Assembly (NCBI RefSeq): GCF_030291075.1
Contig: NZ_CP127407.1
Span: 2,664,001 to 2,728,000, forward strand
Source of the DNA: Stenotrophomonas sp. 57
Lineage (GTDB): Bacteria; Pseudomonadota; Gammaproteobacteria; Xanthomonadales; Xanthomonadaceae
DNA: 64,000 nt
Direction: 5' to 3'
The notes under the pieces were generated by a model that was given only the letters and a program-made list of their open reading frames with translations, made no database searches and had not been told where the DNA came from. This document shows, piece by piece, positions 20,655-37,649 of this stretch (its first letter is position 1; every line of letters begins with the position of its first letter). The translations under genes and the position numbers were made by a program.

Positions 20655-21527
20655 TTACAGCGTCGGCTCGATCAATACCCCGCCATGCGCCACCCGGTCA
20701 TAGCAGGTGCGCACCACATCTTCCCCGTACTTCAACTCCAGCCGGCGCACGATGAAGTGGCCACGCGCCATGTCCTGGTAGTAGTCGGTGAACATGGTAT
20801 TGAGCGTTGCACCGGCAGCGGCACCGACAATCGGCACCGCCTGCGCGGCGAACTTCTCGGTAACCACCACGCCGAACCGCGCCGCCACCTTCTCCACCAT
20901 CTTCGCCAGCAGCTTGCCGGCCTCCTTCGGCGCCACGCCCAGGGTCAGGTCACGGCCGGTCACCACGCGCCCGGCCAGTTCGGCCGACAGGTGGCGCATC
21001 ACATCGGTGGTGAAACCGCGGGCCAGGTAGTAGCCGGTCTCGCTGGCGTCATCACGGGGCGAATTGCCGCCCAGCGCGAACACTTCCAGGCAAGCCTGGC
21101 GGGTGCTGAACTCGGACAGGTCGAAGCCCTCGCTGCGGGCCACGTCGGCCACGGCGCGCATCATGATGGTGGTCGATACCGGGAGCTCGATGAACAAGGC
21201 CGCAAAGCCGAACGCCCCACCGACCGCGCCGGAGGTGGCCGCCGCCAGCTTGTGCCAACGGGTGGAGGCGCCTTTGCCCGGGGTGTTGTCCATGCTCCAT
21301 AGCGCGGCCTGCGCGGACTTGGACAGTGCCGCCTGCACGGCGCCATGGATGCGATTGGAGACCGAGCTGGGCAGCGCCTTCACCGCGAACTCCAGCGGCG
21401 TGCCGACCAGGTTGGCCATGCGCGCGGTCAGGGTCGGCGCTTCCAGCAGGGCCACCGCCCGCTGCAGGTCGGACCAGTCGCGGGCGTCGTGGGCGATGTC
21501 GCGGGGGAGCAGGATGGGCTCGTTCAT
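20655..21527 (-). CDS. EcsC family protein
   Basis: The 290-residue product has EcsC-family segments: SNRIHGAVQAALSKSAQAAL, a glycine/alanine-rich amphipathic centre (AATSGAVGGAFGFAALFIEL) and IVGAAAGATLNTMFTDYYQDM with VRRLELKYGEDVV near the end. EcsC proteins are linked to ABC-transporter operons in Bacillus, but their function is unclear and here no transporter is adjacent. ATG 21527 (MNEPILLPRD) is chosen; the frame continues upstream into orn where it is a shadow. Confidence 0.85.
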   Translation of the reverse strand: MNEPILLPRDIAHDARDWSDLQRAVALLEAPTLTARMANLVGTPLEFAVKALPSSVSNRIHGAVQAALSKSAQAALWSMDNTPGKGASTRWHKLAAATSGAVGGAFGFAALFIELPVSTTIMMRAVADVARSEGFDLSEFSTRQACLEVFALGGNSPRDDASETGYYLARGFTTDVMRHLSAELAGRVVTGRDLTLGVAPKEAGKLLAKMVEKVAARFGVVVTEKFAAQAVPIVGAAAGATLNTMFTDYYQDMARGHFIVRRLELKYGEDVVRTCYDRVAHGGVLIEPTL

Positions 21528-21562
21528 GGCGCCGATCTTAGCGCCCGGGAGTTGAACGGAGG

Positions 21563-21585
21563 GTAGCGCCGGTCCATGCCCGGCG
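21563..21585. repeat. SMAG element
   Basis: GTAGCGCCGGTCCATGCCCG followed by GCG: GTAG head and a CGCCGG...CCGGCG-type stem, between the stop of orn and the start of the EcsC gene. To the right I noticed no further SMAG until 63836. Confidence 0.75.
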
Positions 21586-21592
21586 GCGGCGT

Positions 21593-22165
21593 TCAAGCAG
21601 CCGGCAACCCCGACAACGCCCCCATGAACTGGCGGTAATGGCGCAGCTCGGCGATCGAATCGTGCACGTCGCTGAGGGCAGTATGGTTGCTGTTCTTGCC
21701 GACACCGGCAGCCACAGTCGGCGCCCAGCGCTTGGCCAGTTCCTTCACCGTGGACACGTCCAGGTTGCGGTAGTGGAAGTACTTCTCCAGCCGCGGCATC
21801 TGGCGGTGCAGGAAGCGACGATCCTGGCAGATCGAGTTGCCGCACATCGGCGACAGGCCGGCCGGAATCCACTGGGCCAGGAAGTTCACTGTCTGCGCCT
21901 CGGCCTGGCCGAGCGTCGTGGTGCTGTCCACCACGCGCTGCCACAGGCCCGAGCGGCGGTGCTGGTTGCGGTTCCACTCATCCATCGCCTCCAGCGTTTC
22001 CAGCGGATGGTGGATGGCGAATTCCGGACCTTCGGCCAGCACGTTGAGCTGGGCGTCGGTGACCACGGTCGCGATCTCGATGATCGAATCGTTGTCGGTG
22101 TCCAACCCGGTCATCTCCAGGTCGATCCAGATCAGTCGCTCGTTGGCCGCGCCGGTGTCCGCCAT
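21593..22165 (-). CDS. orn: Oligoribonuclease
   Basis: The 190-residue 3'-5' exonuclease finishes RNA decay by hydrolysing two-to-few-base RNA, including pGpG from cyclic di-GMP breakdown. It has the DEDDh catalytic pattern: [16 protein letters not shown] (D15, E17), ...[14 protein letters not shown] (third acidic residue) and [20 protein letters not shown] (His and final Asp). Length matches the family (about 180). It lies upstream of the EcsC gene on the same strand with a SMAG between them. It connects functionally with the diguanylate cyclase at the left of the window. Confidence 0.96.
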
Positions 22166-24934: not shown

Positions 24935-25588
24935 TTGCGCCACAAGATGATCCCGTGCCTTGCTCTGCTTCTATTGACCGCCTGCAACCCGGAGACCGCC
25001 ATGAACCAGGAACGTGCCGCTGCCGAAGCCGATGTCGCCCAGGGTGGGCGCGGCCTCGCCAAGCTAAACCCCAGCCCGCGCAAGGCTTATGAACTGGTAT
25101 TGCGCCTGAAGGACGCTCCCGGCGATTTCGCGGTGGTCGAAGGCGTGGCGCAGTACGACGTCACCAACGAGGATCAGTGCGGCCACATCGAGCCGGCAAC
25201 CGGCACCGCCGCCCGCATCACAAGCCAGGAACCTGTGGAGCTGCGCAGGGTCGCTGAGGGCGAGTATCGCGGCACCGTGTACCTCGACCGGATGCTGGAT
25301 GAGGACTACTACGGTCGTGGCGTCTGCAAATGGGCATTCAGCGGCGCCGGCGCGATGTTGAAAGCCACCGGCGCCGAGGGTGAGACCCGCTTCCTGTCGT
25401 TCATTGAGGCAGCGCCCTTCGTCAAAGGCGAGACCGAGACTCGCCACTATCCTCGCGCAGACTATCCGCGCGTGAATGAGATTCCTGATTACGGCGCAAG
25501 CGGCCAGGAAGATCCCACCAAGTTCCGCCCTGAACTGCGGAATGCGCTGTTCTCCGCTTCGCTTGAAGCCAGCGAGGTCCGCCAATGA
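24935..25588 (+). CDS. Lipoprotein, candidate immunity protein of the lipase effector (copy 2)
   Basis: The 217-residue product begins at TTG 24935 (MRHKMIPCLALLLLTAC), placed 6 bases after a perfect AAGGAGG; the lipobox is LLLTAC. It is a paralogue of the preceding lipoprotein, from DVAQGGRGLAKLNPSPRKAY to LRNALFSASLEA. Its stop codon overlaps the start of the lipase effector gene (ATGA), so the two are co-translated, as expected for an immunity-effector pair. The duplication may widen protection against variants of the lipase. Function is inferred from context. Confidence 0.78.
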   Translation: MRHKMIPCLALLLLTACNPETAMNQERAAAEADVAQGGRGLAKLNPSPRKAYELVLRLKDAPGDFAVVEGVAQYDVTNEDQCGHIEPATGTAARITSQEPVELRRVAEGEYRGTVYLDRMLDEDYYGRGVCKWAFSGAGAMLKATGAEGETRFLSFIEAAPFVKGETETRHYPRADYPRVNEIPDYGASGQEDPTKFRPELRNALFSASLEASEVRQ

Positions 25589-26913
25589 GCCTCAACAGCC
25601 AAGACTATGCTGCGCTATCCGAAGATGCATACAAGGATTATGCAGTCGGTCGTCGTGCACCTGGCCAAGAAGAAATCGTCCCGATCAACGGGCACAAATA
25701 CAAGATTCTCGAGCACGTTGATAATCGACTGAACGGTTATCAGGGAACGATCTACCAGCGAGTCGACACCAATGAAATTGTCGTCGCACATCGCGGAACC
25801 GAACAAATCGCACGCGATGCGATTCTGACCGATGGCGGCATGGTCGTTGCCCGCACCAATGTGCAGGCTCCAGACGCCATCGCGCTGACTCAACGCGCCA
25901 TCGCTTACGCCAAGAAGGAGGGGCAGGATCTCGGGCAGCGTCCACCCGAAGTCACCGTCACTGGCCACTCCCTCGGCGGCGCCCTCGCCCAGATCACCTC
26001 GCACCATTTCAACGTCAAGGGCGAGACCTTCAATGCCTATGGCGCGGTCAGCCTCAGCTACCGCATCCCGGAAGGCGGCAACACCATGATCAACCACGTC
26101 ATGGCCTCCGATCCGGTCAGCGCCGCGTCGCCGCATTTCGGCCAGGTGCGCATCTATGCGAAGCCGGATGAAATCAAGACACTCGCCGCAAACGGCTTCA
26201 GCAACCATCCGATGCGCGCCCTGATCCCGGACAGCCCGCTCATTGCAGCAGGCAGCTCGTTCGGTGCGCACAAACTGGGCAACTTCCTCGGCGACGGCTC
26301 GGCACTCAAGCACCCGGAAACGCAGACGCTGGCCAAAGACAACGCCAAGATGATCGAGGAGTACCGCGACGACGTAGAGTCACTGCGCCGTGGCGTTACC
26401 CGTGCAGCGCGAGGCATCCCGGGCGGCGCCATCGATCTGTACGACCACATCCGCGGCCCGCTGCAGCCCGGTGAGCCGGCACGCCGCGAGGCGGAGAAGA
26501 ACGGCCATCACACCAGCATGCTGCGCATGGACGATGCCAACCACCTGGGCAACCCATTGTTCAACGACGCGATCCGCGGCGTGCATGCGCAGGACGTGCG
26601 GGTCGGGCGCGTGCCGGACGTGATGAGTACGCAGCTGGCCGGCAGCCTGGCGGCCGAAATGCATGCCGCAGGTGGCAAGCGCATCGACGAAGTCGTGATG
26701 AATGCCGATGCATCGCGCAGCTTCGCGGTGCAGGGCCAGGGCGGCGACCCGGCACACCTGCGCGTGTCGGTGGATACCGCGGTGGCGATGAACACGCCGC
26801 TGGAGCAGAGCAGCCAGCGCATCGACCAGCAGGCCGCCGGTCAGCGCCTTGCGCTGGAGCGCGACCAGCAACTGGAACAGCAGCAGAACCAGACCCGCAG
26901 CATGCAGGCCTGA
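25585..26913 (+). CDS. Class 3 lipase-like antibacterial effector with XVIPCD-type C-terminal tail
   Basis: The 442-residue product has no signal peptide. The N-terminal half is an alpha/beta hydrolase of lipase class 3: VVAHRGTEQIARD (oxyanion region), VTVTGHSLGGALAQITS (nucleophile S129), VMASDPVSA (D176) and a later His (H229 or H208). From about residue 305 the tail fits the XVIPCD that VirD4 recognises in X-T4SS effectors: HLGNPLFNDAIRGVHAQDV, KRIDEVVMNADASRSFAVQG, then a Q-rich end (LERDQQLEQQQNQTRS). It should attack target-cell phospholipids. Two lipoproteins lie immediately upstream. I did not check its identity to known X-Tfe. Confidence 0.85.
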   Translation: MSLNSQDYAALSEDAYKDYAVGRRAPGQEEIVPINGHKYKILEHVDNRLNGYQGTIYQRVDTNEIVVAHRGTEQIARDAILTDGGMVVARTNVQAPDAIALTQRAIAYAKKEGQDLGQRPPEVTVTGHSLGGALAQITSHHFNVKGETFNAYGAVSLSYRIPEGGNTMINHVMASDPVSAASPHFGQVRIYAKPDEIKTLAANGFSNHPMRALIPDSPLIAAGSSFGAHKLGNFLGDGSALKHPETQTLAKDNAKMIEEYRDDVESLRRGVTRAARGIPGGAIDLYDHIRGPLQPGEPARREAEKNGHHTSMLRMDDANHLGNPLFNDAIRGVHAQDVRVGRVPDVMSTQLAGSLAAEMHAAGGKRIDEVVMNADASRSFAVQGQGGDPAHLRVSVDTAVAMNTPLEQSSQRIDQQAAGQRLALERDQQLEQQQNQTRSMQA

Positions 26914-28324: not shown

Positions 28325-29332
28325 TCATATTGAGCGCGAGCGCTGCTCCTGCTCACGGGCAACCGAAGCTGCCTGATCCTGTTGCGAAACACTGGCCGCC
28401 ATCTGCTGGCTGCTTTGCGCCAACGGCTGCTGGGCGGCCTGTTCCCTGTCTATGGACGCGCGCAGCATCGCCGGATCACCCAACGCGCCCTGCACCGCAA
28501 ACAACGTGCGTCCGTCGTTGCCCGCCAGCAGATGGTCAATGCGCGACATCCCGGCCTTCTGTGCGCTCAGCGCCAGTGCGCCGGCCGCATTGTCCAGTTC
28601 CTGCGCACTGCGCAGCCCGCTCTGCGGCCCCATCTGCTGCAGGTGCTGGCGTGCGTTCTGGAACAGGACGTGTCCCGGCTCGCCCGGCTGCGACATGTCC
28701 CGTGCACCGGCCTGCTGCGCCGGCGCCCCGACTTCGCCTCTATCCAGCCGCACCATCACGTCCGGCGTCAGCTTCTGCTGCCAGACCTCGAAGCGCTGCT
28801 GCCGGGCCTCGATGCCGTTGAGCGCGCCATTGATCGCACGCGTGGCCTCGCGCACATCCTCGCGCGCCGCCTCCGGCACGCGTGTCTGCCATTGCCAGAC
28901 CGCGATGCGGCCGGCGTGCTCGGGCTGCGCAGCCAGTTCCGGATGGTTCACCAGGTCCAGGTCCAGCGCCTTGCCGGCACGCTCGTAATTCTCCTTGCCA
29001 ACCAGCGGCAGGTAGCCGCGGCCGTGATACTTCAAAGCGTCGCCCGGCGCGTCATTGCCCATCCGCCCGCCGTACATCAGCTCGGCCAGGTTCTCCGGCC
29101 GGCCACGCAGCGCCTCCTGGCGGGCGCTCTCCAGCGCACCATTGCCATTACGCCACGCGGCCTCGACCGGGATCTGCGAGATGCCCCGGGTGAAGTTGAA
29201 GCTTTCATTGAGCCGGCTCAGGCCACGCGACTCGTGTCCGGCCTGCGCCATGAAGTTGGCCAGTTCCCGGGACGAGGTGATGCCGGCCTCCGTGGCCTGT
29301 CGCAACAACTGCGACTCTCTATCCTGCGACAC
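28325..29332 (-). CDS. GH19 lysozyme-like antibacterial effector with XVIPCD-type tail
   Basis: The 335-residue product starts at GTG 29332, 7 bases after AGGAG; a TTG two codons earlier would put that site too close. The N-terminal domain resembles GH19 chitinase/endolysin: ANFMAQAGHESRGLSRLNES, with catalytic Glu in GHES and a second Glu in NESFNF, and YHGRGYLPLVGKENYERAG, where the usual Q-L-T is P-L-V. The tail from about residue 210 fits an XVIPCD (GHVLFQNARQHLQQMG, MSRIDHLLAGNDGRTLFAVQ) and ends in Q-rich repeats. It resembles the Xanthomonas Xac2609 class, a peptidoglycan-degrading X-T4SS effector. No signal peptide is present. Confidence 0.85.
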   Translation of the reverse strand: MSQDRESQLLRQATEAGITSSRELANFMAQAGHESRGLSRLNESFNFTRGISQIPVEAAWRNGNGALESARQEALRGRPENLAELMYGGRMGNDAPGDALKYHGRGYLPLVGKENYERAGKALDLDLVNHPELAAQPEHAGRIAVWQWQTRVPEAAREDVREATRAINGALNGIEARQQRFEVWQQKLTPDVMVRLDRGEVGAPAQQAGARDMSQPGEPGHVLFQNARQHLQQMGPQSGLRSAQELDNAAGALALSAQKAGMSRIDHLLAGNDGRTLFAVQGALGDPAMLRASIDREQAAQQPLAQSSQQMAASVSQQDQAASVAREQEQRSRSI

Positions 29333-29389
29333 GGTCAAACTCCTGCTCGATCATCGTGGGGTCCTCCTGCCTCCTCACAGGCGCGGCAC

Positions 29390-29926
29390 TCAAGGCAAGC
29401 TCACGTCGGCAACCACGGACGGATCGAAGTCCTCAAACCGCACCCTGCCCAGTTCGGCCACCGAGAAGTCACGGGTGTGGGTTGCCTCGGTCTCGGTGTC
29501 GACCACCCGTCGCTGCACGCCATGGACCCAACAGACCTGCTCGGACGGCGCGTAGCGGAACGTATAGGTGCTGCTCCAGCGCTCGCGGCTGCCGCCGTTG
29601 GTGATCACGCTGAAAGCGCCATCCTCGATCGTCACGTAGGCGAAGGGATCACCGGCAATGCCGCCGCGGGTAGAGCACGGCACCAGCTTGTCGTTGCGCG
29701 CCGCCAGCTGCCATTGTCCCGCGGCATCGCCCAGCAGCAGCAACAGCACCCGGTTGGGACCGTGCTCTCCGGGCACCAGGCCATCGGGGGCGGGCTGATC
29801 GATGACCAGCAACTGGTCGTCGATGCCATTGCCGGTCAGATCACCGCGCACGGCTTCCAGCAGGTTCGCGCCGGACGGCACGAACGCCAGGGCATTGTCC
29901 ATGTTCGTGCCGCTCCCCTTCTGCAT
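29390..29926 (-). CDS. Candidate immunity protein for the lysozyme-like effector
   Basis: The 178-residue product starts at ATG 29926 with AAGGAG 9 bases upstream. It has an EF-hand-like acidic loop (RGDLTGNGIDDQLLVIDQP) and NRVLLLLLGDAAGQWQLAAR, then cysteine-containing segments (KLVPCSTRG, SEQVCWVHG). It lies 57 bases upstream of the effector on the same strand, the position that Xac2610 (a calcium-binding periplasmic inhibitor) holds relative to Xac2609. Unlike that protein, no signal peptide or lipobox is visible at this start, and upstream in-frame sequence does not supply one. Immunity function is inferred; the N-terminus may have been lost. Confidence 0.62.
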   Translation of the reverse strand: MQKGSGTNMDNALAFVPSGANLLEAVRGDLTGNGIDDQLLVIDQPAPDGLVPGEHGPNRVLLLLLGDAAGQWQLAARNDKLVPCSTRGGIAGDPFAYVTIEDGAFSVITNGGSRERWSSTYTFRYAPSEQVCWVHGVQRRVVDTETEATHTRDFSVAELGRVRFEDFDPSVVADVSLP

Positions 29927-30123
29927 CCGCTGCCACTCCTTCAATCCCGTCCTGCCAGTACGCGTGCGCCGGCCGGGATACCGCGCAATGCGCCGCAGGC
30001 CCCGGTGTCCGCCAGAGCGGATGATAGCCCCGGCCCTGCGGTGGTGGTGTTTTGGGTGTGCGTCACCCGCACCGCGGGTCGTCAGCGTCCTCATGGACGG
30101 GAAAGCTCCTGCGTTCGATGGCA

Positions 30124-30226
30124 CCGATGCGCCGGAATTTTGACGCGCACGCAGCTTACTTCGAGGAGGCTTCAGTCGTCGAAGGGGGAACGCAGCGAAA
30201 AGCGGACTTGATCACATAAAAGCGGG
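30124..30226. repeat. About 100-bp duplicated segment, copy 1
   Basis: This stretch matches 32124-32226 over about 100 bases, with blocks such as CGATGCGCCGGA, CGCGCACGCAGCTTACT, GTCGTCGAAGGGG and CGGACTTGATCA in the same order. On the minus strand it could begin a short frame at GTG or ATG (IKSAFR / IKSVFR), but both copies soon diverge into stops or another frame, so it looks like a decayed gene start or a recombination footprint. Confidence 0.7.
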
Positions 30227-30382: not shown

Positions 30383-30475
30383 TCACCCCTCCCAACGCGA
30401 CTGTGCGGAACTGACACCGCAAACAAACCCGGCGGCAGCAGCAACCAACACCCCGGCCAGACCGCATTTCATCAT
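30383..30475 (-). CDS. 30-aa signal-peptide-like ORF, possibly a truncated secreted protein
   Basis: MMKCGLAGVLVAAAAGFVCG followed by VSSAQSRWEG and stop. A strong AGGAGG lies 5 to 8 bases before the double ATG. The sequence is almost entirely a signal peptide with an SSA-type cleavage site, so it is either a very small exported peptide or the 5' remnant of a secreted protein lost by rearrangement. It follows the first DUF4189 gene by 42 bases on the same strand. Short length keeps confidence moderate. Confidence 0.4.
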   Translation of the reverse strand: MMKCGLAGVLVAAAAGFVCGVSSAQSRWEG

Positions 30476-30517
30476 CCCAGCCTCCTGATTCAGTGGCACA
30501 GCGGAGAGGCCGCAGCA

Positions 30518-31051
30518 TCAATACGCCTTGAAGATCGGCTTTGTGCAATCCGAGTAGAAAACCTCGCATGCCCCTGCTTGATCATTCGTGCAGCCTTTCT
30601 GAGCTTCGCGCTCTGCCACGTCGAGTGTCGGCCCTCGTCCAATGCCAGAGCCACCCTGACCTGTCCGGCCGCTGGGAACTACCCATGCCGCACACTGATT
30701 GAAGTAGGCAAGCACAACCTCGCAATCGTTCGCACCCGCGGAAGAACATTTGCCAAGGGCTTCCTGCTCCGCTCCACTCTTCCTTCGCTGCCCTGTCGAC
30801 ACACCTGCATCCGAAGTTCGCTTGGATGTGGCAATTGCACCCCAGGTGGTGATCCATTCTCCAGACGGTTGTGGCGACGAAACGGGAGCGGTCATCCCGC
30901 CATTGTTTGCTCCCGGGATAGGCGCACAGCCCTGTACTCCCTGTCCTCCGATCGGATACATACCAGGGGGGCAGTTGCCCTCCGCGCTTGCGGACGAGAA
31001 TGCCAGCCAGAGCATTGCTGCTACGACCACTTGAATCAAACGACTAGTCAT
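30518..31051 (-). CDS. Secreted DUF4189 protein, copy A
   Basis: The 177-residue product starts at ATG 31051 (a GTG at 31057 is an alternative). A signal peptide (LIQVVVAAMLWLAFSSASA) is followed by the motif EGNCPPGMYPIGGQGVQGCA shared with copies B and C, then the DUF4189 core WITTWGAIATSKRTSDAGVS, KCSSAGANDCEVVLAYFNQC and a C-terminal CEVFYSDCTKPIFKAY. It is probably exported and disulfide-bonded. Function unknown. Its place at the cargo end of an X-T4SS, and its multiplication, suggest an immunity or secretion-accessory role (inference). Confidence 0.82.
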   Translation of the reverse strand: MTSRLIQVVVAAMLWLAFSSASAEGNCPPGMYPIGGQGVQGCAPIPGANNGGMTAPVSSPQPSGEWITTWGAIATSKRTSDAGVSTGQRRKSGAEQEALGKCSSAGANDCEVVLAYFNQCAAWVVPSGRTGQGGSGIGRGPTLDVAEREAQKGCTNDQAGACEVFYSDCTKPIFKAY

Positions 31052-31079
31052 TGTCACTCACTCGCGTCCGATACAATTT

Positions 31080-31130
31080 CCAACCATCTGCGAACATGCA
31101 TGAAGTCTCCGGGGCACGCTGGAAAAAGCC
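31080..31130 (-). pseudogene. Decayed remnant of the virB6 3' region
   Basis: The plus-strand sequence ACCATCTGCGAACATGC followed by ATGAAG, then GGGcaCgCTGGAAaAA, aligns with the virB6 copies at about 32008 and 33392 (ACCTATCTGCGAACATGCC ... GGGTGCCCTGGAAGAA), with indels. The minus-strand peptide LHACSQMVGN recalls FMACSQIGGS of the better-preserved fragment. It lies just upstream of DUF4189 copy A, the same relation as in the other two units. The match is short, so confidence is limited. Confidence 0.45.
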
Positions 31131-31218
31131 CAAGTCATATCAGACGCTGTCACGCATAGTGCCCCCCTTCCGACGCGGCATGCATGTCTGCTGACAGCCA
31201 TCATGCAGAACCTGGCGA

Positions 31219-31767
31219 TCAACGATACGCCCTGAACTCCGACATACTGCAGGCCGAGTAGGCCACTTCGCACGCGCCTCCACCATTCACAGAGGCGCAT
31301 TCCTTCATCGCGAGCGATTGAGCTTCGTCAAGTGTTTCAGCGCTGGCAACGATTGAATTTCCGGCAGCCTCTCCGCCCGAGCGGGGCGACGGATCGGCGA
31401 TCGCGGCGCATTGATCGTGATAGCTCAGACGAATCTCACACTTGCTCCCTCCTCGCCGGACACATCCGTCGATCGCCGCCGCTTCCGCAGCTCGCTTCGA
31501 TTTCTGGGATACGGAAACACCAGTTGCCATCAAGCCACCAGTTGCTGGTTTTTTGTCCTCAGCGATGGCTCCCCAGCGCGTCTCCCATTTCCCGGCCGGA
31601 ACCGGCGCAGAAGATCCAGTGGAGGGAGAGCTGCTTCCGCCAGGAATAGGCGCACACCCGCCGACGCCCTGCCCTCCAACAGGGTACTGCCCAGGGGGAC
31701 ATCTCCCCTCCGCCAGAGCGGAAAAAGGGGCTATCAGCAGCGCGGCCGCAAGAAAGAACTTGATCAT
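31219..31767 (-). CDS. Secreted DUF4189 protein, copy B
   Basis: The 182-residue product starts at ATG 31767 after GGAG. Signal peptide MIKFFLAAALLIAPFSALAE, then RCPPGQYPVGGQGVGGCAPI, a Ser/Gly linker, and the DUF4189 core KWETRWGAIAEDKKPATGGL, SKCEIRLSYHDQCAAIADP and GACEVAYSACSMSEFRAY. It shares layout and cysteine spacing with copies A and C but differs in many core positions, so the duplications are not recent or the proteins diverge fast. Upstream lies a well-preserved virB6 3' fragment. Confidence 0.85.
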   Translation of the reverse strand: MIKFFLAAALLIAPFSALAEGRCPPGQYPVGGQGVGGCAPIPGGSSSPSTGSSAPVPAGKWETRWGAIAEDKKPATGGLMATGVSVSQKSKRAAEAAAIDGCVRRGGSKCEIRLSYHDQCAAIADPSPRSGGEAAGNSIVASAETLDEAQSLAMKECASVNGGGACEVAYSACSMSEFRAYR

Positions 31768-31811
31768 AGTGTTTACTCCAATCCCTGAATCATGCGCTGA
31801 TCAAGCCTCAA

Positions 31812-32115
31812 CTAACTTCCAGCAGCCTTGCCATGCGTACCAGGCCCAAGACTTCCGCTAGACCCGCCTTCACCTATAGACCTTCCACTGGTTGCATAGG
31901 TTACTGGTGGTGAAACATGCTTCTCCGCATTAGAAGTCTGAGGCGGCATGTAACTACCCGGCGGCTGGCCGTTTGAGCTGGGCGCCTGCGCTACCGGGCT
32001 ACCACCTATCTGCGAACATGCCATGAAGGTACCCAGGGTGCCCTGGAAGAACATCGCGGCCATTGGGGGCGCAGTCAGGATCAGTGTCGTCAGGATCAGG
32101 CCCATGCCGCCCTGC
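31812..32115 (-). pseudogene. virB6 3'-end fragment
   Basis: On the minus strand the frame reads QQGGMGLILTTLILTAPPMA then AMFFQGTLGTFMACSQIGGS, nearly identical to the last part of intact VirB6, and goes on for about 65 divergent residues to a stop (NGQPPGSYMPPQTSN retained). At DNA level about 105 bases (32012-32115 against 33396-33501) are almost identical. The upstream side breaks abruptly at 32116 into the 100-bp repeat. It lacks a plausible start and all but one membrane segment, so it is most likely a by-product of tandem duplication. Confidence 0.85.
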
Positions 32116-32123
32116 TGCCAATG

Positions 32124-32226
32124 GCCCCGATGCGCCGGACTTCTTTCGCGCACGCAGCTTACTGCGTGGAGATTTCGGTCGTCGAAGGGGTCTAGAGCGA
32201 AAAACGGACTTGATCATACAAAAAGC
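32124..32226. repeat. About 100-bp duplicated segment, copy 2
   Basis: Partner of 30124-30226. Here it abuts the broken end of the virB6 fragment; the short GCAGCAGGGCGG-like junction suggests recombination through microhomology. The minus-strand frame starting ATG 32217 (MIKSVFRSRPLRRPKSPRSK) runs through the junction into the wrong frame of virB6 and is not considered a gene. Confidence 0.7.
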
Positions 32227-32400
32227 ACGGTTATCGTGAATGATTGCTTAGTCGTTCGCGTGAGCATTCGCTACGGACACCTTGTACAGCGTGGCTATCC
32301 TGGTTCGCATGCCGAACACCCAGCTGAAGCATCGATGGATCAGCACCTTCTAAACATTGAACAGAGGCTCAGTGCAATCTGCGTAAGATGCTGTACGTGC
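32227..32400. other. Gene-free stretch, lower GC
   Basis: No supported gene on either strand. Base composition is clearly less GC-rich than the flanking virB genes, consistent with foreign or decaying DNA. Confidence 0.4.
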
Positions 32401-32607
32401 TCACGACGGTTGGTTCCAGCACCTCCCTTGAGGCGCCCCCGTAGCCTCCGCCTGCGCCAGACCGTATCCATGCCGGACAGGGACTATGTACTTCCCCCGC
32501 TCAGGGTGATCCAGAAAGCGCACCAACTGAAGGAAGTCATGCCGCCCCTGATCACGCGCCCAAAAGGCGGCGCACGCTTGCACAGCTTCCCGTTCTGCGC
32601 CGTTGAC
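32401..32607 (-). pseudogene. Orphan gene remnant, unknown family
   Basis: An open frame without a convincing start or ribosome-binding site reads AFWARDQGRHDFLQLVRFLD, then HPERGKYIVPVRHGYGLAQA and ends CWNQPS. The composition (aromatic, charged, few rare residues) looks like true protein, unlike ordinary shadow frames. It lies immediately beyond DUF4189 copy C. It may be the C-terminus of a lost cargo gene; GTG 32583 could start a 60-residue product. Family not recognised. Confidence 0.35.
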
Positions 32608-32622
32608 CTATCCGAAGTCTTA

Positions 32623-33150
32623 TCAGTACTTCCGGAAGACGGGCAAGGAGCATTCGGAATAGACGACGGCGCACTTTCCGCCTCCGGTATCCCGACAATG
32701 ACCAATTGCATTTCCAGCGACGGTCTCTGCATCTACCGCCGTATCCAAGGAGCCCTGCCCCTTTCCTGAGGACGGTACAGCGAATGCAACGCATTGGTTG
32801 TAATAGGTGACCGAAGACTTGCAGTCCTTTGCACCCTCTGCGGCGCACTTCTTGATCGCCACATCCACCGCACGCCGCTCGCTGGACTCATTGGCTGCGG
32901 TGCCGACGAGATTTGACGTAGGCGATTCAGCCACGGCTCCCCATCTCGTCAACCACTCCCCCAACGGCTGAGCAGGAGCGGGAGCAGAGGGCGATGCCGT
33001 TCCACCAACTGCACCAGGAATTGGCGCGCAACCCTGGACACCCTGCCCACCAATCGGATACGACCCTGGGGGGCACCCACCTTCTCCTGATGCGGAGTGT
33101 ACGCATAACAACAATACAACGAGAACTATGTAGGTCAAAGTCGTTCGCAT
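32623..33150 (-). CDS. Secreted DUF4189 protein, copy C
   Basis: The 175-residue product starts at ATG 33150, 5 bases after GGAGG (the ATG one codon earlier would be too close). Signal peptide MRTTLTYIVLVVLLLCVHSA, then GEGGCPPGSYPIGGQGVQGC, and the core WLTRWGAVAESPTSNLVGTA, KDCKSSVTYYNQCVAFAVPS, ending KCAVVYSECSLPVFRKY. It directly follows intact virB6 (23-base gap), so it is probably the ancestral position of the family in this locus and part of the virB operon. Confidence 0.85.
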   Translation of the reverse strand: MRTTLTYIVLVVLLLCVHSASGEGGCPPGSYPIGGQGVQGCAPIPGAVGGTASPSAPAPAQPLGEWLTRWGAVAESPTSNLVGTAANESSERRAVDVAIKKCAAEGAKDCKSSVTYYNQCVAFAVPSSGKGQGSLDTAVDAETVAGNAIGHCRDTGGGKCAVVYSECSLPVFRKY

Positions 33151-33173
33151 CATGGCCTCCAATTCCCGAAGAG

Positions 33174-34328
33174 TTACGAATTCATTGTTCCAGCATTGCC
33201 GCGCTGCCCACTCTGAATCGGAGATTCAGTGGTCGCGCCTCCAAATCTAGGCATCGTATCTTGAACCGGAACCTGACTTGAGGCCCTCGAATTGGTGGGA
33301 ACAGGAGGCATGTACATTCCTCCGCCCGACCCACTAGAACCCGGCGGCTGCCCATTCGGACCCGGCGACGTCGGCACCGCGCTACCGCCTATCTGCGAAT
33401 ATGCCATGAAGGTACCCAGGGTGCCCTGGAAGAACATCGCGGCCATTGGGGGCGCAGTCAGGATCAGTGTCGTCAGGATCAGGCCCATGCCGCCCTGCTG
33501 CAGCGCCATGCTGCTCATGCCCTCGGTCAGGTTCGACCCCAGCAGTGCACCCAGCGCGGATGCGCCCCAGAACGAAGCCGCCACGCGTGCCACCATTTCC
33601 ATGGCAATGCCGGTCATCGCCGCCAGCACCGCCATCGAGAACATGGTGCCGATGCCATAGAACAACCATCGTTGGAACAGCGACTTTGTCTGCTCGAACA
33701 GCAGGCACAGGATGAACAGTGGTCCGAATCCGATGAACAGCGCCAGCGCGATCTGGTACAGCAGCAGCATCGCACCCGCAGTCACGGCGGGACCGCCCGT
33801 TCCCAGGCCGATGAACCACATCGCGCGGGTCTTGGCACTATCCAGCGCCACGTCGCCGGCCACATCCAGCACGCTTACCGACGTGAGTGCCAGCTGCATG
33901 TAGCCCAGGTTCTTGTCGATCAGCTCCTCCGCGGTCGACTTCTTGCCGGTCACAATGTAGGTGATCTGGTCCTGCACATCGCCGGTCAGGAAGTTCTGCA
34001 GCTTGGTTCCGAACATCGCCATCGACGTCGCGACGGTAACGATCAGGGCGGCGCGCGCCATGTTCGTCATCAGCGCAGCCATCGAGTCACGGCTCCGTCC
34101 GGTCACGATGCGGAAGCCTTGGATGAGCACCCACAGCGTCATCAGCACCAACGCCATCGTGCCGACCCAGGTCATCATCCGGCTCAGGATACCGTTACCG
34201 AAGTTGGTGATCTCGTCGCGCAGATAATCCAGGATCAGCCGGAAGAAGACGAAGTCGCCCACCGACGCGAACAACGTGCCGTGCAACAGATCATTGAACA
34301 CCATACCGTGCATCATTCCCTGACTCAT
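33174..34328 (-). CDS. virB6: VirB6, polytopic inner-membrane T4SS component
   Basis: The 384-residue product has several hydrophobic helices (MMTWVGTMALVLMTLWVLIQ, LLYQIALALFIGFGPLFILC, GMGLILTTLILTAPPMAAMF) and the TrbL/VirB6 layout, with a polar Gly/Pro/Asn-rich C-terminal tail of about 85 residues. It forms part of the inner-membrane complex and substrate path. ATG 34328 is used; GTG 34331 directly before it is possible. Its 3' end has been copied at least once, probably twice, downstream (31812-32115 and near 31080). Confidence 0.92.
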   Translation of the reverse strand: MSQGMMHGMVFNDLLHGTLFASVGDFVFFRLILDYLRDEITNFGNGILSRMMTWVGTMALVLMTLWVLIQGFRIVTGRSRDSMAALMTNMARAALIVTVATSMAMFGTKLQNFLTGDVQDQITYIVTGKKSTAEELIDKNLGYMQLALTSVSVLDVAGDVALDSAKTRAMWFIGLGTGGPAVTAGAMLLLYQIALALFIGFGPLFILCLLFEQTKSLFQRWLFYGIGTMFSMAVLAAMTGIAMEMVARVAASFWGASALGALLGSNLTEGMSSMALQQGGMGLILTTLILTAPPMAAMFFQGTLGTFMAYSQIGGSAVPTSPGPNGQPPGSSGSGGGMYMPPVPTNSRASSQVPVQDTMPRFGGATTESPIQSGQRGNAGTMNS

Positions 34329-34380
34329 CACATCACCCGCCCCGCATCGGGGCCCTGCTGGAGTGCGTTGCGCACGTGAT

Positions 34381-35169
34381 TCACTTCGAAAGCGCGGCCT
34401 TCAGCGCGCCGGCCTTGATGACGCTGCCAATCGGATTGCGCTCGCCACGCAACGCGCGCTCGGCCAGGTTCTTCTGCCGCCCCTGAAGGGCAAGAATCTG
34501 CTGATCGTAGACCTTGACGGTGGTTTCCCACTTCTTGAATGCCTTATCGAGTTCGACCGCGGTTGCCGTGTTGTTGGAGATATCCTCCTGCAGCGCGCCT
34601 TCGTTCTTGAACGCATTGCGGATCCGGCGCAGCTGCTGCAGCATCTGCTCCATTGCCGGCATGGACATCTGCACGACCTCGACGGTCTCGTTGTACTTCT
34701 TGTTCTCAAGCACCTGGATGTACGAGCAGATCGCACGCTGCTGCGCGCCGATATCGCCACCCGGGCTCATGTTCAGCACCGCCATCAGGCCGCTCATGCT
34801 GATCATGGAATCGCCACCGCACTTTTCGGCCACGTTCCAGTTTTCGGGAATCTTGGTCAGTGTGGGCGTCGGCGGCATCAGCGGCGAAGCAATGATCTGG
34901 GTCCAGTTCTGCAGCTTGGACAGCCAGTTGTCGATGGTCTTGCCGTACTGCTCTGCCGTCTGGCTCCAGCGCGCGGCCGTCTCGAAGTACTCCTTGCCGG
35001 CCTTCATCTCCTGCAGGAAGTTCATGACCCAGTTGAACGGGTCATAGACGGTCATCGCCTGCGCCGGGCTGGTGCCGGTGCTCACGGTCAGGCCCAGCGT
35101 CAGTACGGCGGCCATCAGGGGCGCCATGCGACGCCGGCGAATGGGCTTGCGTTGGGTTTCGGTCGTCAT
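34381..35169 (-). CDS. virB5: VirB5-like minor pilus component
   Basis: The 262-residue product begins at ATG 35169, 8 bases after AAGGAAA. A basic N-terminus and a signal peptide (APLMAAVLTLGLTVSTGTSP region, cleavage after PAQA) precede a helical body (VYDPFNWVMNFLQEMKAGKE, NAFKNEGALQEDISNNTATA) typical of VirB5/TrbJ. It lies between virB4 and virB6, as in X-T4SS loci. Two cysteines (EKCGGDS, AICSYIQ) may form a disulfide. Confidence 0.88.
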   Translation of the reverse strand: MTTETQRKPIRRRRMAPLMAAVLTLGLTVSTGTSPAQAMTVYDPFNWVMNFLQEMKAGKEYFETAARWSQTAEQYGKTIDNWLSKLQNWTQIIASPLMPPTPTLTKIPENWNVAEKCGGDSMISMSGLMAVLNMSPGGDIGAQQRAICSYIQVLENKKYNETVEVVQMSMPAMEQMLQQLRRIRNAFKNEGALQEDISNNTATAVELDKAFKKWETTVKVYDQQILALQGRQKNLAERALRGERNPIGSVIKAGALKAALSK

Positions 35170-35201
35170 GGCAGTTTCCTTGTTCGTTTGAGTGGGCAGG
35201 T

Positions 35202-37649
35202 TCATGCCGTCTCCTCCTGATCCTGTTCGGCCCGCTTGCCCGAGCCCTTTCGATTCTTGTAGAACGCGTCCAGCCACTGATCCGGGGTCAGCTCGTCCAC
35301 CGTCACACGGTTGCGGACCGCTGCCGTCTGCAGCACGCGATGCATGATGTCGATGTTGTCGGTCGAGGCCGAGATCACCGACAGGATGTCGTCCATGCCG
35401 CGCAGGTTGAGCTGGCAGACGCTCGAGGCATGACCCTGCTTGACCAGGAAGCAGCGCGAACGCTCGTCCAGCGCGGTAACCACCTTGAACTCGGCCTCGG
35501 TCAGCTTCAGGCCATCCATGTAGTCGCTCTTGCTGGCGTTCGGGTTCGGCAGCAGGATCAGCGTGGCGGTCTGTTCGATCAGCGCCGCGGAGATGTCGCT
35601 CTTCAGCGCATCCTCCGGGCTCTGCGTAGCGAAGATGCCCAGACCGTTCTGCTTACGGATGGTCTTCTGCTTGTTCTTCGCGAACTCCTTCAGGCCACCC
35701 TCGCCGTCCAGGATCTTCCAGAATTCGTCCATCACATAGATCAGCGGACGGCCGTCGATCAGTGACTCCAGGCGGTGCAGCAGGTAATTGATGACCGGCA
35801 CGCGCACTTCAGGGTTGTCGATGATGTCGGTGTAGTCGAACCCGATGATGTTGGCCTTGCTGAGATCAACGGTATCGACCGGGTTGTCGAACACCCAGCC
35901 CAGCGAGTTGCCCGAGGTCCAGCGGCGCATCCGCGCGTAGAGACCGTCATCGCCCATGTTGGGCAGGCTCTTCTGGAAGTTGGTCATGCTGCGCAGGTGC
36001 ATCGGCGTATCGAGCATGCTCTCCACCGCGCGGTAGATGTCCTCTTCCTCACGGGCGCTGTACTCGCGCTTGCCGGCCAGCACCTTGATCAGGTCGGCCA
36101 GGAACTGCACGTTCGACTCGTTGTTCTCGCACTGGAACGGGTTGAAGCCGGTCGGCGCACCGTTCTCCAGCGCGAGGTAGTTGCCACCGCAGGCGCGCAC
36201 GAAGATCTCCGCGCCGCGGTCCTTGTCGAAGAAGAAGATGGTCGGTGACGGCTCGTACTTCTGGACCTGGCTGAGCAGGAAGTTGATCAGCGCGGTCTTG
36301 CCGGTACCGGATTTGCCGATCACCATGGTGTTGGCGATGGCCTTCTCGCCCAGCGAGTTCTCCGACGGATGGGTCGCGTGGAAGTTGAAGTAATACGGCT
36401 GGCCGTTGGTGGTCTGCAGCGTGGTGACGCAGTCACCCCAGGGGTTGTTGTGCTGCTTGCCGGTGGCAAAGTTGTGCAGCGGCGACAGGCCCAGGAAATT
36501 CAGCGAGCTGACATTGGCCAGGCGCGTACGGTAGCGCCAGTTGCCCGGCAGCTGCGAATAGAACGACGAGGTAACCGCGAGGTCTTCCTTGGTCGACACG
36601 AACCCGGCATTGGACAGCTCGGCGCGGGTCGAGGCCACGTTCTGCGAGAGCTTGGCCTGGGTATCGCCGTAGACCGCCATGATGAAGTGGTACTCGCCCA
36701 GCACGAAGTTGCCGGACGACAACTGATCCATGGCCTGGTCCAGCTCGACGATCTGGCTGACCGCCTTGTCGCCGGAGGAGATCATCATGCCCTTGGTGCG
36801 GTCGAGCACCTTCAGCGCGTCCTGGCGCCCCATCGGGCTGAACGAATGGGTGATGACATACTCGTAGTCCAGGTACTTCAGGCCGTTGAGAATGCCCGGG
36901 TAGGTGCCCTCGGCATACTCCTTGATGTTGAGGATGGCACCGAAGTGGTTGGCACCATTCGGGGTGTTGATGACAAAGTCGCCGGTCTTGGCCGAGAACA
37001 TGTGCCGGCTGACCGGCAGGTAATCCTTGATCGGCGCCGGCAGCACCGGAACCGGCTCGTCGATGCGGTTGATCAGGTAGCCGAACAACTCCAGCGTCTC
37101 GGAGAACACCACGCCATTCTTTGCCTCATACATGCCCAGGCGATACGGCGCGTAATCACGGATCACTGCCTCGACGTTGCCGGCCAGCTCCATCAGCTTC
37201 TCGATGGCCTGTTCCTGCTCGGCACGCAGGCGATCGACGTTCGCCGACTTCTCCACGAAGCGCTTACCCGATACCACCGGGCGATAGATCATGGTCAGGT
37301 ACAGCTCGTTCTGCATGATGCGCTGCGAGGACAGCATGCCCATGTACTGATCGGACACGTCCTGGTTGAAGCGCTGCCGGTAGGTGCTCTTGCCTTTCAA
37401 CGTGCGACGGCGCCGGATGTCGTGCACCCAGAAAGCCACGTTGACGAAGTCCGGCGCGCGCAGCGTCTGCAGCAGGCGATTGAAGGTGTTGTGCCGATGC
37501 TCGAGTTCCCATTCCTCACGTCCGACGAACGGCAGCCCCTCCAGGTACCAGGTCAACAGGTAGTCACCGCCCGTGGTCTTGACCACGTTCGGGGCGACAT
37601 GCGTCGACAGGGGAATGAACTCACTGATGGAGGTATCTGGGCTGAACAT
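35202..37649 (-). CDS. virB4: VirB4 T4SS ATPase
   Basis: The 815-residue ATPase energises pilus or channel assembly. The N-terminal CagE/TrbE-type domain (PNVVKTTGGDYLLTWYLEGL) is followed by a RecA-like motor with Walker A VIGKSGTGKTALINFLLS near residue 445 and Walker B-type RPLIYVMDEFWKILDGEG; IFATQSPEDALKSD follows. Length and motifs fit VirB4. It starts 82 bases after virB3 and ends 32 before the virB5 start. Confidence 0.96.
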   Translation of the reverse strand: MFSPDTSISEFIPLSTHVAPNVVKTTGGDYLLTWYLEGLPFVGREEWELEHRHNTFNRLLQTLRAPDFVNVAFWVHDIRRRRTLKGKSTYRQRFNQDVSDQYMGMLSSQRIMQNELYLTMIYRPVVSGKRFVEKSANVDRLRAEQEQAIEKLMELAGNVEAVIRDYAPYRLGMYEAKNGVVFSETLELFGYLINRIDEPVPVLPAPIKDYLPVSRHMFSAKTGDFVINTPNGANHFGAILNIKEYAEGTYPGILNGLKYLDYEYVITHSFSPMGRQDALKVLDRTKGMMISSGDKAVSQIVELDQAMDQLSSGNFVLGEYHFIMAVYGDTQAKLSQNVASTRAELSNAGFVSTKEDLAVTSSFYSQLPGNWRYRTRLANVSSLNFLGLSPLHNFATGKQHNNPWGDCVTTLQTTNGQPYYFNFHATHPSENSLGEKAIANTMVIGKSGTGKTALINFLLSQVQKYEPSPTIFFFDKDRGAEIFVRACGGNYLALENGAPTGFNPFQCENNESNVQFLADLIKVLAGKREYSAREEEDIYRAVESMLDTPMHLRSMTNFQKSLPNMGDDGLYARMRRWTSGNSLGWVFDNPVDTVDLSKANIIGFDYTDIIDNPEVRVPVINYLLHRLESLIDGRPLIYVMDEFWKILDGEGGLKEFAKNKQKTIRKQNGLGIFATQSPEDALKSDISAALIEQTATLILLPNPNASKSDYMDGLKLTEAEFKVVTALDERSRCFLVKQGHASSVCQLNLRGMDDILSVISASTDNIDIMHRVLQTAAVRNRVTVDELTPDQWLDAFYKNRKGSGKRAEQDQEETA

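What the first reader, a model, noticed from the sequence alone, without database searches (positions are those of the whole stretch)
30383..34328. Tandem amplification of a virB6-tail plus DUF4189 unit at the cargo end of an antibacterial T4SS
Intact virB6 is followed by DUF4189 copy C; then a well-preserved virB6 3' fragment precedes copy B; then a much decayed virB6 trace precedes copy A. The same order three times implies that the duplicated unit was 'virB6 3' end + DUF4189 gene', with age increasing leftward. All three proteins keep a signal peptide, the CPPGxYPxGGQGVxGCAPIPG motif and cysteine spacing, while the hitch-hiking virB6 pieces decay, which points to selection for several diverged DUF4189 copies. 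An immunity or secretion-accessory role is an inference.
Basis: partly seen in the sequence, partly recalled or inferred. Interest (0 to 1): 0.75.

Follow-up and report, generated by a model that had tools for sequence, protein, structure and literature searches.

The report
VirB6-linked DUF4189 orphan gene array
Next to the gun that these bacteria use to kill rivals lies a row of diverged small exported proteins, left behind as the end of the gun's channel gene was swapped again and again, and they may be the unknown shield that stops sister cells from shooting one another.

Summary
Three intact DUF4189 genes follow virB6. A virB6 fragment (91% over 163 nt) precedes copy B, and a 44-nt trace precedes copy A (0 of 300 shuffles reach it). 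A decayed fourth copy and a repeated border element were missed.

"Tandem amplification" is not the main process. In 53 Stenotrophomonas loci, 27 of 155 copies have their nearest relative in the same array. 14 of 26 shared allele clusters are virB6-adjacent in one genome and orphan in another. Window copy C with its virB6 end sits displaced in a genome that appears to be S. maltophilia D457. This is serial displacement, as in CDI orphan modules.

DUF4189 follows virB6 in 66 of 68 judged X-T4SS loci, and by primer match XAC2611 of X. citri belongs here. Solo virB5-virB6-DUF4189 cassettes occur elsewhere in genomes.

Best explanation: DUF4189 is a self-protection (exclusion) protein keyed to VirB5/VirB6, a candidate for X. 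citri's uncharacterised anti-fratricide mechanism (PMC10933484). Architecture is shown; function is inferred (0.42).

The parts
33174..34331 (-). virB6, active copy (385 aa); its last ~45 codons (33174 to about 33320) are the hypervariable tail
   Evidence: Pfam TrbL/VirB6 95 bits; mean per-site entropy 2.2-3.2 bits in residues 346-385 against 0.2-1.8 elsewhere, 45 loci; DNA match to L038, L055 and L066 stops at window 33307-33322
32623..33162 (-). DUF4189 copy C, the virB6-adjacent copy
32359..32604 (-). decayed remnant of a fourth DUF4189 gene
   Evidence: tblastn of copy A residues 94-176, 28%, E 6e-4; nearby DNA matched in L055 and L066
32111..32227 (.). second copy of border element E, at the junction with the displaced virB6 fragment
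   Evidence: 81% to 30108-30221; 98% in L038
31899..32118 (-). displaced virB6 3' fragment (VirB6 residues 278-357); the best-kept 163 nt are 31956-32118
   Evidence: 75% aa, 84 bits; 90.8% nt
31219..31767 (-). DUF4189 copy B (orphan)
   Evidence: Pfam 64.2 bits; 0.97 aa identity to the second copy of L075, omega 0.29
31086..31127 (-). virB6 trace before copy A
   Evidence: 77% over 44 nt, 0 of 300 shuffles
30518..31057 (-). DUF4189 copy A (orphan)
   Evidence: Pfam 72 bits; 0.99 to L038 copy 7 and 0.93 to L066 copy 10, omega 0.22 and 0.27
30108..30225 (.). border element E, downstream edge of the array
   Evidence: hit just before the TfcB immunity gene in most loci mapped; no Rfam match
34381..35277 (-). 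virB5, hypervariable partner gene upstream of virB6
   Evidence: position before virB6 and virB5 profile (no Pfam family above cut-off); mean identity 0.36 across 48 loci against 0.91 for virB4
35202..37649 (-). virB4 (conserved reference gene)
   Evidence: CagE_TrbE_VirB 176.7 bits
28325..30124 (-). effector with GH19-like and XVIPCD domains (TfcB-like, 28325-29338) and the gene before it, its presumed immunity partner (29390-30124)
   Evidence: PF20410 96.9 bits and GH19 38.2 bits on 28325-29338; no Pfam hit on 29390-30124; pairing inferred from position

Best explanation
The region is the cassette-exchange end of an antibacterial (X-type) T4SS. SHOWN by comparison: the last part of virB6 and the DUF4189 gene behind it often move between strains as one block. 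A newcomer takes the virB6 end, and the old virB6 3' piece with its DUF4189 gene is left downstream as an orphan. virB6 pieces rot while many DUF4189 genes stay whole. INFERRED: DUF4189 proteins are small exported, disulphide-bonded proteins that act in the cell under attack as exclusion (self-protection) factors. They recognise the VirB5/VirB6 tip-channel module of an attacking kin cell and stop delivery of the whole toxin cocktail. The virB6-adjacent copy protects against sister cells. Orphan copies protect against strains that carry modules the lineage used earlier or met in neighbours.
For: 1. DUF4189 directly after virB6: 66 of 68 judged loci among the best 80 of 294 VirB4 relatives (64 by the distance rule plus L178 and L237, where it overlaps virB6); 18 of 20 loci in other genera chosen by virB6. 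In 91 Stenotrophomonas genomes: 54 both, 2 virB6 only (one of them a 23% match), 1 DUF4189 only, 34 neither.
2. virB5-virB6-DUF4189 trios without virB4 in the stretch fetched in 11 of 20 further virB6 places (14 if a detected virB5 is not required; virB6 is split over two frames in L143 and L153). All 11 genomes have one full-length X-type VirB4 (81-83%) elsewhere.
3. Diversity peaks there: mean identity VirB4 0.91, VirB6 core 0.71, DUF4189 0.38, VirB6 tail 0.37, VirB5 0.36 (48 loci).
4. The same allele type (>=0.70) is virB6-adjacent in one genome and orphan in another in 14 of 26 multi-locus clusters; 80 further types were seen in one locus only.
5. A distal orphan type: 9 full-length of 11 places, omega 0.13-0.46 at dS 0.10-0.93, always last of its array in 8 of 8, downstream flank fully shared in the 11 pairs compared.
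6. Precedent: exclusion genes of conjugative T4SSs sit beside virB5/virB6-type genes, and for IncF, IncC and SXT the donor partner is the VirB6-like TraG (passages of PMC8923210, PMC11493245, PMC12624023).
7. Need: X. citri is spared by sister cells without its effector immunity proteins, by a 'still-to-be-characterized mechanism' (passages of PMC10933484). XAC2611 follows virB6 and is co-transcribed with the operon (passages of PMC7286519). Its published primers fit the DUF4189 gene of X. vasicola (L234; 0 and 2 mismatches; 1 of 80 loci).
Against: No function was tested. Only 1 of 35 virB6-negative Stenotrophomonas genomes keeps an array-type DUF4189; a pure shield should be useful there too. 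Co-variation with VirB6 is not specific: partial matrix correlation with the VirB6 core is 0.42 for the adjacent copy, 0.32-0.35 for random orphans and 0.31 for the last copy, and with the VirB6 tail the last copy scores higher (0.45) than the adjacent one (0.36) (39 loci). Co-inheritance of tail and DUF4189 is explained by linkage, since the downstream flank is shared as often (0.75 against 0.67, 47 pairs), and in 13 of 47 pairs of near-identical DUF4189 genes the upstream flank is hardly shared (coverage below 0.25). dN/dS does not separate orphan DUF4189 (0.20) from virB6 fragments (0.19). Known exclusion proteins are inner-membrane proteins or lipoproteins; by eye these copies have no lipobox. 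For RP4 TrbK no donor partner is known (PMC8923210). VirB6 C-termini are cytosolic in two model systems (PMC6536674), so the variable tail is an unlikely contact for a periplasmic protein. 56 of 169 later DUF4189 frames are partial, about 38 broken genes once close pieces are merged.
Confidence: 0.42

Rival explanations
1. DUF4189 is a periplasmic assembly or stalk partner of VirB5/VirB6 needed by the attacker; orphan copies are passive remnants or a reservoir for gene conversion.
For: Adjacency to virB6, virB5-virB6-DUF4189 trios, co-absence with the T4SS (34 of 91 genomes lack both, 1 keeps DUF4189 alone), broken orphans (56 of 169 later frames partial).
Against: The distal orphan type has no virB6 fragment detected next to it, is not virB6-adjacent in 8 of 8 ordered loci, and still shows omega 0.13-0.46 with 9 of 11 places full-length. 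Two of 68 loci do without DUF4189.
Confidence: 0.3
2. DUF4189 proteins are exposed or tip-associated target-recognition factors; several copies widen the range of prey or dodge phages that use the pilus.
For: Diversity focused on virB5 (pilus tip), virB6 tail and DUF4189; constant N-terminal motif with a variable C-terminal domain.
Against: No pilin or adhesin match by Pfam, NCBIfam or fold search, which does not exclude one; orphan copies in the array lack a paired virB5.
Confidence: 0.17
3. DUF4189 copies are ordinary effector-specific immunity proteins (X-Tfi).
For: They lie between virB6 and an effector-immunity pair.
Against: The XVIPCD effector next door has its own upstream gene; DUF4189 also follows virB6 where the next frames are an amylase-like gene, as in L112 and L113 (by eye), and in solo cassettes.
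Confidence: 0.05
4. Neutral tandem duplication of an unimportant gene.
For: Repeats and decayed copies in the window; identity within arrays above that between arrays (0.435 against 0.350); 7 within-array pairs at 0.70 or more.
Against: Nearest relatives lie in other genomes for 128 of 155 copies; omega about 0.2; presence in 66 of 68 judged loci.
Confidence: 0.06

Closest known systems
Orphan cdiA-CT/cdiI modules of CDI and Rhs loci (PMC3150448, passages seen)
   Same: A main weapon gene is followed by an array of 3' fragments of that gene, each with a small partner gene; a module can be main in one strain and orphan in another.
   Different: The fragment is of a channel gene (virB6), not of a toxin, so the partner cannot be a toxin-specific immunity protein in the CDI sense.
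Entry exclusion of conjugative T4SSs (TrbK, Eex beside VirB5/VirB6-type genes; TraS/EexC with TraG)
   Same: Small exported or membrane protein encoded beside virB5/virB6-type genes; where the donor partner is known in IncF, IncC and SXT it is VirB6-like TraG.
   Different: No exclusion family matched in Pfam or NCBIfam; no lipobox by eye; here the cargo is a toxin cocktail, and copies occur in arrays.
XAC2611 of Xanthomonas citri
   Same: Gene directly after virB6, co-transcribed with the virB operon (PMC7286519); its published qPCR primers (PMC3953393) fit the DUF4189 gene of X. vasicola.
   Different: Called hypothetical, no function in the passages seen; the X. citri sequence itself was not seen here.
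Rv1813c (PDB 7nhz), solved structure of a DUF4189 protein
   Different: A mycobacterial protein reported to act on host mitochondria (PMC10269737, listing and one passage); matches only residues 67-172 of copy C, not its CPPGxYP part.

Membership tests
DUF4189 (PF13827) | score above Pfam's gathering cut-off over the full profile | tested here: met
   72, 64.2, 65.2 bits, cut-off 25, profile 1-97 of 97
DUF4189 (PF13827) | two-lobed beta-beta-alpha-beta fold with disulphides as in Rv1813c | tested here: met
DUF4189 (PF13827) | WACN motif named for the Rv1813c family (PMC10269737) | tested here: inconclusive
   the cysteine is invariant, but the copies read NQCA, DQCA or NQCV
X-T4SS | virB genes with adjacent XVIPCD effectors | tested here: met
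   PF20410 on 25585-26913 (89 bits) and 28325-29338 (96.9 bits); VirB4, VirB6, TrbI (VirB10), T2SSE (VirB11) and SLT (VirB1) matches
X-T4SS | enlarged VirB7 with N0 domain | not tested
   not examined
conjugative entry-exclusion proteins (Eex/TrbK/TraS) | gene beside virB5/virB6-type genes | tested here: met
   66 of 68 judged loci
conjugative entry-exclusion proteins (Eex/TrbK/TraS) | sequence relation to a known exclusion family | tested here: not met
   only DUF4189 in Pfam up to E 0.1; no NCBIfam match better than E 0.21, neither an exclusion family; not filed as a member
conjugative entry-exclusion proteins (Eex/TrbK/TraS) | blocks transfer when present in the recipient | not testable with these tools
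   needs a killing assay
CDI/Rhs orphan modules | 3' fragments of the main weapon gene, each followed by a small gene; same module main in one strain, orphan in another | tested here: met
   53 of 62 virB6 fragments in 73 loci are followed by DUF4189 within 600 nt; 14 of 26 clusters mixed
CDI/Rhs orphan modules | the fragment encodes a toxin neutralised by the small protein | tested here: not met
   the fragment is VirB6 membrane part and tail; works like, is not a member
X-Tfi effector immunity proteins | paired with an adjacent XVIPCD effector | tested here: not met
   paired with virB6 instead, also in loci without an effector right behind

The most novel reading that the evidence does not exclude
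X-type T4SSs carry an apparatus-level immunity system: an exported DUF4189 protein, encoded as the third gene of an exchangeable virB5-virB6-DUF4189 cassette, makes a cell refuse delivery from any attacker with the matching tip-channel module. Displaced cassettes leave intact DUF4189 genes that form a heritable record of past modules, that is, shields against several kin types at once.
Probability: 0.38. Interest if true: 0.9.

Novelty: new variant of a known kind. Interest (0 to 1): 0.77.

Why it matters
A 2024 paper reports that X. citri does not kill sister cells even when effector immunity proteins are missing, and calls the mechanism still to be characterised (PMC10933484, passages seen). 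This work points to one gene family, present after virB6 in 66 of 68 judged loci, that can be tested at once. It would also explain why virB5 and the end of virB6 are so variable beside a conserved virB4. Even if the function is different, DUF4189 should be added to the list of X-T4SS genes.

Tried and rejected
Matrix-correlation test for VirB6-DUF4189 co-variation: positive, but orphans give nearly the same, so inconclusive. dN/dS as proof of selection on orphans: no contrast with virB6 fragments, and looked only at full-length frames with aa identity >=0.75; only the distal orphan type is informative, and a recheck for broken members changed '8 of 8 intact' to 9 of 11. Tail-DUF4189 co-inheritance as proof of interaction: 11 of 11 pairs with DUF4189 >=0.86 share the tail at >=0.85, but only 61 of 85 units had a readable tail, the downstream flank is shared as often, 13 of 47 near-identical DUF4189 pairs hardly share the upstream flank, and one pair with tail 0.83 has DUF4189 0.33. 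DUF4189 as effector domain: two-domain DUF4189 proteins near some loci have a hydrophobic start and, by eye in L036 and L061, no effector tail (no family scan made). DUF4189 outside the family: 14 class genomes besides G000 and G006, of 369; in the ~3-kb loci held no virB4, virB5 or virB6 was matched; in 18 kb around one of them (L159) I recognised no T4SS gene by eye, without a profile search. Border element E: no Rfam family. Promoter and terminator scan: about as many sites as in shuffles. Single-sequence PDB search: no match. Fold-search rows other than Rv1813c are weak. Papers: DUF4189 with 'type IV secretion' 0 papers; DUF4189 3 papers (listing; one passage of PMC10269737); XAC2611 in 2 papers, passages seen, no function; in the rows listed (20 of 141; 10 of 15) no title or abstract start names such a gene. 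Rows dropped: 8 of 81 loci (no intact virB6 or no virB4); L063, L088, L089 for the tail split; 12 of 80, five of them with virB4 but no virB5 or virB6 found nearby, the others cut short.
Full report
OBSERVATION. The window is 64 kb of a single-contig 4.44-Mb genome (G000). On the minus strand, virB4, virB5 and virB6 are followed by DUF4189 copy C, a virB6 3' fragment, copy B, a virB6 trace, copy A, and then an effector with GH19-like and XVIPCD domains and its presumed immunity gene. Self-comparison gives the fragment at 90.8% over 163 nt and the trace at 77% over 44 nt; 0 of 300 dinucleotide shuffles of the spacer reach the trace's score, best shuffle 29.7 against 31.1 bits. Two things were not in the finding. 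A decayed fourth DUF4189 lies at about 32359-32604. A ~115-nt element E at 30108-30221 is repeated at 32111-32223 (81%), and its second copy abuts the virB6 fragment.

RELATED LOCI. I fetched 40 regions chosen by DUF4189 matches and 20 more of the genus, most chosen by virB6. Across 48 loci the mean pairwise identity is 0.91 for VirB4, 0.36 for VirB5, 0.71 for the VirB6 core, 0.37 for the VirB6 tail and 0.38 for the first DUF4189. Within VirB6, residues 346-385 have mean entropy 2.2-3.2 bits against 0.2-1.8 elsewhere (45 loci). 53 loci hold 165 full-length DUF4189 frames, up to 8 per locus. The first copy is full-length in 52 of 52 loci that have one; of 169 later frames 113 are full-length and 56 partial, the partial ones making about 38 broken genes once close pieces are merged. 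In all 73 loci with intact virB6 and virB4, 53 of 62 virB6 fragments have a DUF4189 frame within 600 nt downstream and 9 do not.

DISPLACEMENT, NOT SIMPLE AMPLIFICATION. If copies arose mainly by in-place duplication they should be closest to their array mates. Only 27 of 155 are. In-place duplication is not absent: mean identity is 0.435 within and 0.350 between arrays, and 7 within-array pairs reach 0.70, one 0.94. But most copies match copies elsewhere. Window C equals the first copy of L075 (1.00) and is 0.97 identical to the eighth copy of L066; B is 0.97 to the second of L075; A is 0.99 to the seventh of L038. In L066 (contig length and position as S. maltophilia D457) a 1211-nt piece 93.8% identical to window 32604-33814, that is, virB6 from about residue 173 plus copy C, sits as an orphan while that genome's virB6 has another end and another DUF4189. 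Against L038 and L055 the stretch from virB4 on is about 97% identical up to window 33307-33322, inside virB6, and then differs. 14 of 26 clusters found in two or more loci (single linkage at 0.70) contain both a first copy and a later copy; 80 types were seen in one locus only. Among 61 units with a readable tail (of 85), all 11 pairs with DUF4189 identity >=0.86 have VirB6 tails agreeing at >=0.85. However, the downstream 300 nt are shared as often as the upstream 300 nt (0.75 and 0.67, 47 pairs), and in 13 of the 47 the upstream is hardly shared. So this shows block transfer, not interaction, and DUF4189 genes also move or survive without the virB6 piece. The second E copy beside the virB6 fragment is the kind of junction such an insertion would leave (inference).

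SELECTION. Pooled omega between genomes: 0.14 for first-versus-later and 0.20 for later-versus-later full-length DUF4189 (21 and 43 pairs); 0.15 for active virB6 and 0.19 for virB6 fragments (66 and 29 pairs). The fragments cannot make whole VirB6, so low omega there reflects time before displacement, and the contrast does not prove selection on orphans. One orphan type is more telling. It was found at 11 places: 9 full-length (L037, L040, L058, L065, L068, L075, L079, L081, L091) and 2 broken (L046, L078). In the 8 with a known order it is the last copy of its array, 23-28 nt from E, not virB6-adjacent; omega is 0.13-0.46 with dS from 0.10 to 0.93 in 28 pairs, all full-length by choice; the downstream flank is fully shared in the 11 pairs compared. 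Its position therefore seems ancestral, and the gene seems to have been kept without a virB6 partner.

BEYOND THE GENUS. virB6 was matched in 131 of 297 family genomes. In 20 loci of other genera chosen by virB6, 18 have DUF4189 directly downstream (not L109, L111), and some (L097, L107, L114) show virB6-fragment-plus-DUF4189 units. A named scan by a Xanthomonas VirB4 gave the best 80 of 294 loci, some in the same genomes as above. 68 could be judged: 64 have DUF4189 by the distance rule, two more (L178, L237) have it in a frame overlapping virB6, and L227 and L235 lack it; 41 of 68 have more than one DUF4189 frame and 21 a virB6 fragment. The primers published for XAC2611 of X. citri (table in PMC3953393) match inside the DUF4189 gene after virB6 of X. 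vasicola with 0 and 2 mismatches, the only one of 80 loci within the limits I set. So XAC2611 very probably belongs to this family; its own sequence was not seen. Outside the family DUF4189 is rare (16 of 369 class genomes including two Stenotrophomonas).

SOLO CASSETTES. I chose 20 further virB6 places, mostly second copies. 18 of 20 have DUF4189 beside virB6, 16 of 20 show no virB4 in the stretch fetched, 14 of these 16 have DUF4189, and 11 are virB5-virB6-DUF4189 trios; in two of the 11 virB6 is split over two frames. All 11 genomes have one X-type VirB4 (81-83%) elsewhere; three also have weak VirB4-like matches of other systems. DUF4189 thus goes with virB5/virB6 as a three-gene module, much as VgrG islands accompany a distant T6SS (comparison from general knowledge).

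MECHANISM. Facts to explain: adjacency to virB6, export, diversity shared with virB5 and the virB6 end, solo trios, and orphans kept without virB6. In conjugative T4SSs a small exclusion gene often sits beside virB5/virB6-type genes, and for IncF, IncC and SXT the donor partner is TraG, VirB6-like (passages of PMC8923210, PMC11493245, PMC12624023); for RP4 TrbK no donor partner is known. In X. citri, sister cells are spared even when effector immunity proteins are missing, by a mechanism said to be still uncharacterised (passages of PMC10933484), and the mutants described should still have XAC2611 (inference). An exclusion protein keyed to the VirB5/VirB6 module would explain all of this in one step. 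Which part is read is open: VirB6 C-termini are cytosolic in two model systems (PMC6536674, passage), so VirB5 or periplasmic loops are likelier contacts than the tail.

AGAINST. Only 1 of 35 virB6-negative Stenotrophomonas genomes keeps an array-type DUF4189 (G043, L057; the tool scored at most 38 candidates per genome). Co-variation with the VirB6 core is only a little stronger for the adjacent copy (0.42) than for orphans (0.31-0.35), and with the tail it is weaker than for the last copy (0.36 against 0.45). The known exclusion proteins are membrane proteins or lipoproteins. An attacker-side assembly role remains possible (0.30) and a recognition role less so (0.17).

KNOWN OR NEW. Architecture and turnover match orphan cdiA-CT/cdiI modules (passages of PMC3150448), with a channel gene in place of the toxin gene. 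The searches, as far as their listings and the passages seen show, gave no paper that assigns a function to DUF4189 in a T4SS; subscription papers are mostly not held. Hence: new variant of known kinds, with a directly testable link to an open question.

Noticed in passing
L139-L145, L151-L153, L158: virB5-virB6-DUF4189 trios without virB4 nearby, in genera g42 and g33 (two records with matching contigs are Lysobacter and Xanthomonas); L139 and L152 have effector-like or lipase-like genes close by, judged by eye.
   Followed up: partly
G000 C1:1673937-1674242 (outside the window): A second, divergent DUF4189 place in the window's own genome (two partial matches in neighbouring stretches).
   Followed up: no
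L036 8817-10085, L043 8931-10151, L052 918-2529, L061 606-2271, L073 2766-4160, L094 2921-4198: Longer DUF4189 proteins (two domains in L036, L043, L052, L061 and L073) on the opposite strand near X-T4SS genes; in L061 beside a virD4-like gene. They look like another T4SS-linked DUF4189 lineage.
   Followed up: partly
window 30108-30225 and 32111-32227: Border element E, matched upstream of the TfcB immunity gene in related genomes at 64-98%; no Rfam match; may be a promoter or leader region.
   Followed up: partly
L057 7219-7800 (G043): Array-type DUF4189 gene in a genome with no virB6 match.
   Followed up: partly
L035 11508-12101, L062 18283-18876: An isolated array-type DUF4189 gene between an RNase-T-like exonuclease gene and an EcsC-like gene (named by eye from their likeness to window 21593-22165 and 20655-21977), some kilobases from the T4SS.
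   Followed up: no
L098 and L106: Tandem virB5 genes before virB6, as reported for Lysobacter in PMC6536674 (passage seen).
   Followed up: no
window 28382-30211 (+): A 609-aa open frame antisense to the effector region, without a Pfam family above cut-off; probably a high-GC shadow frame.
   Followed up: no
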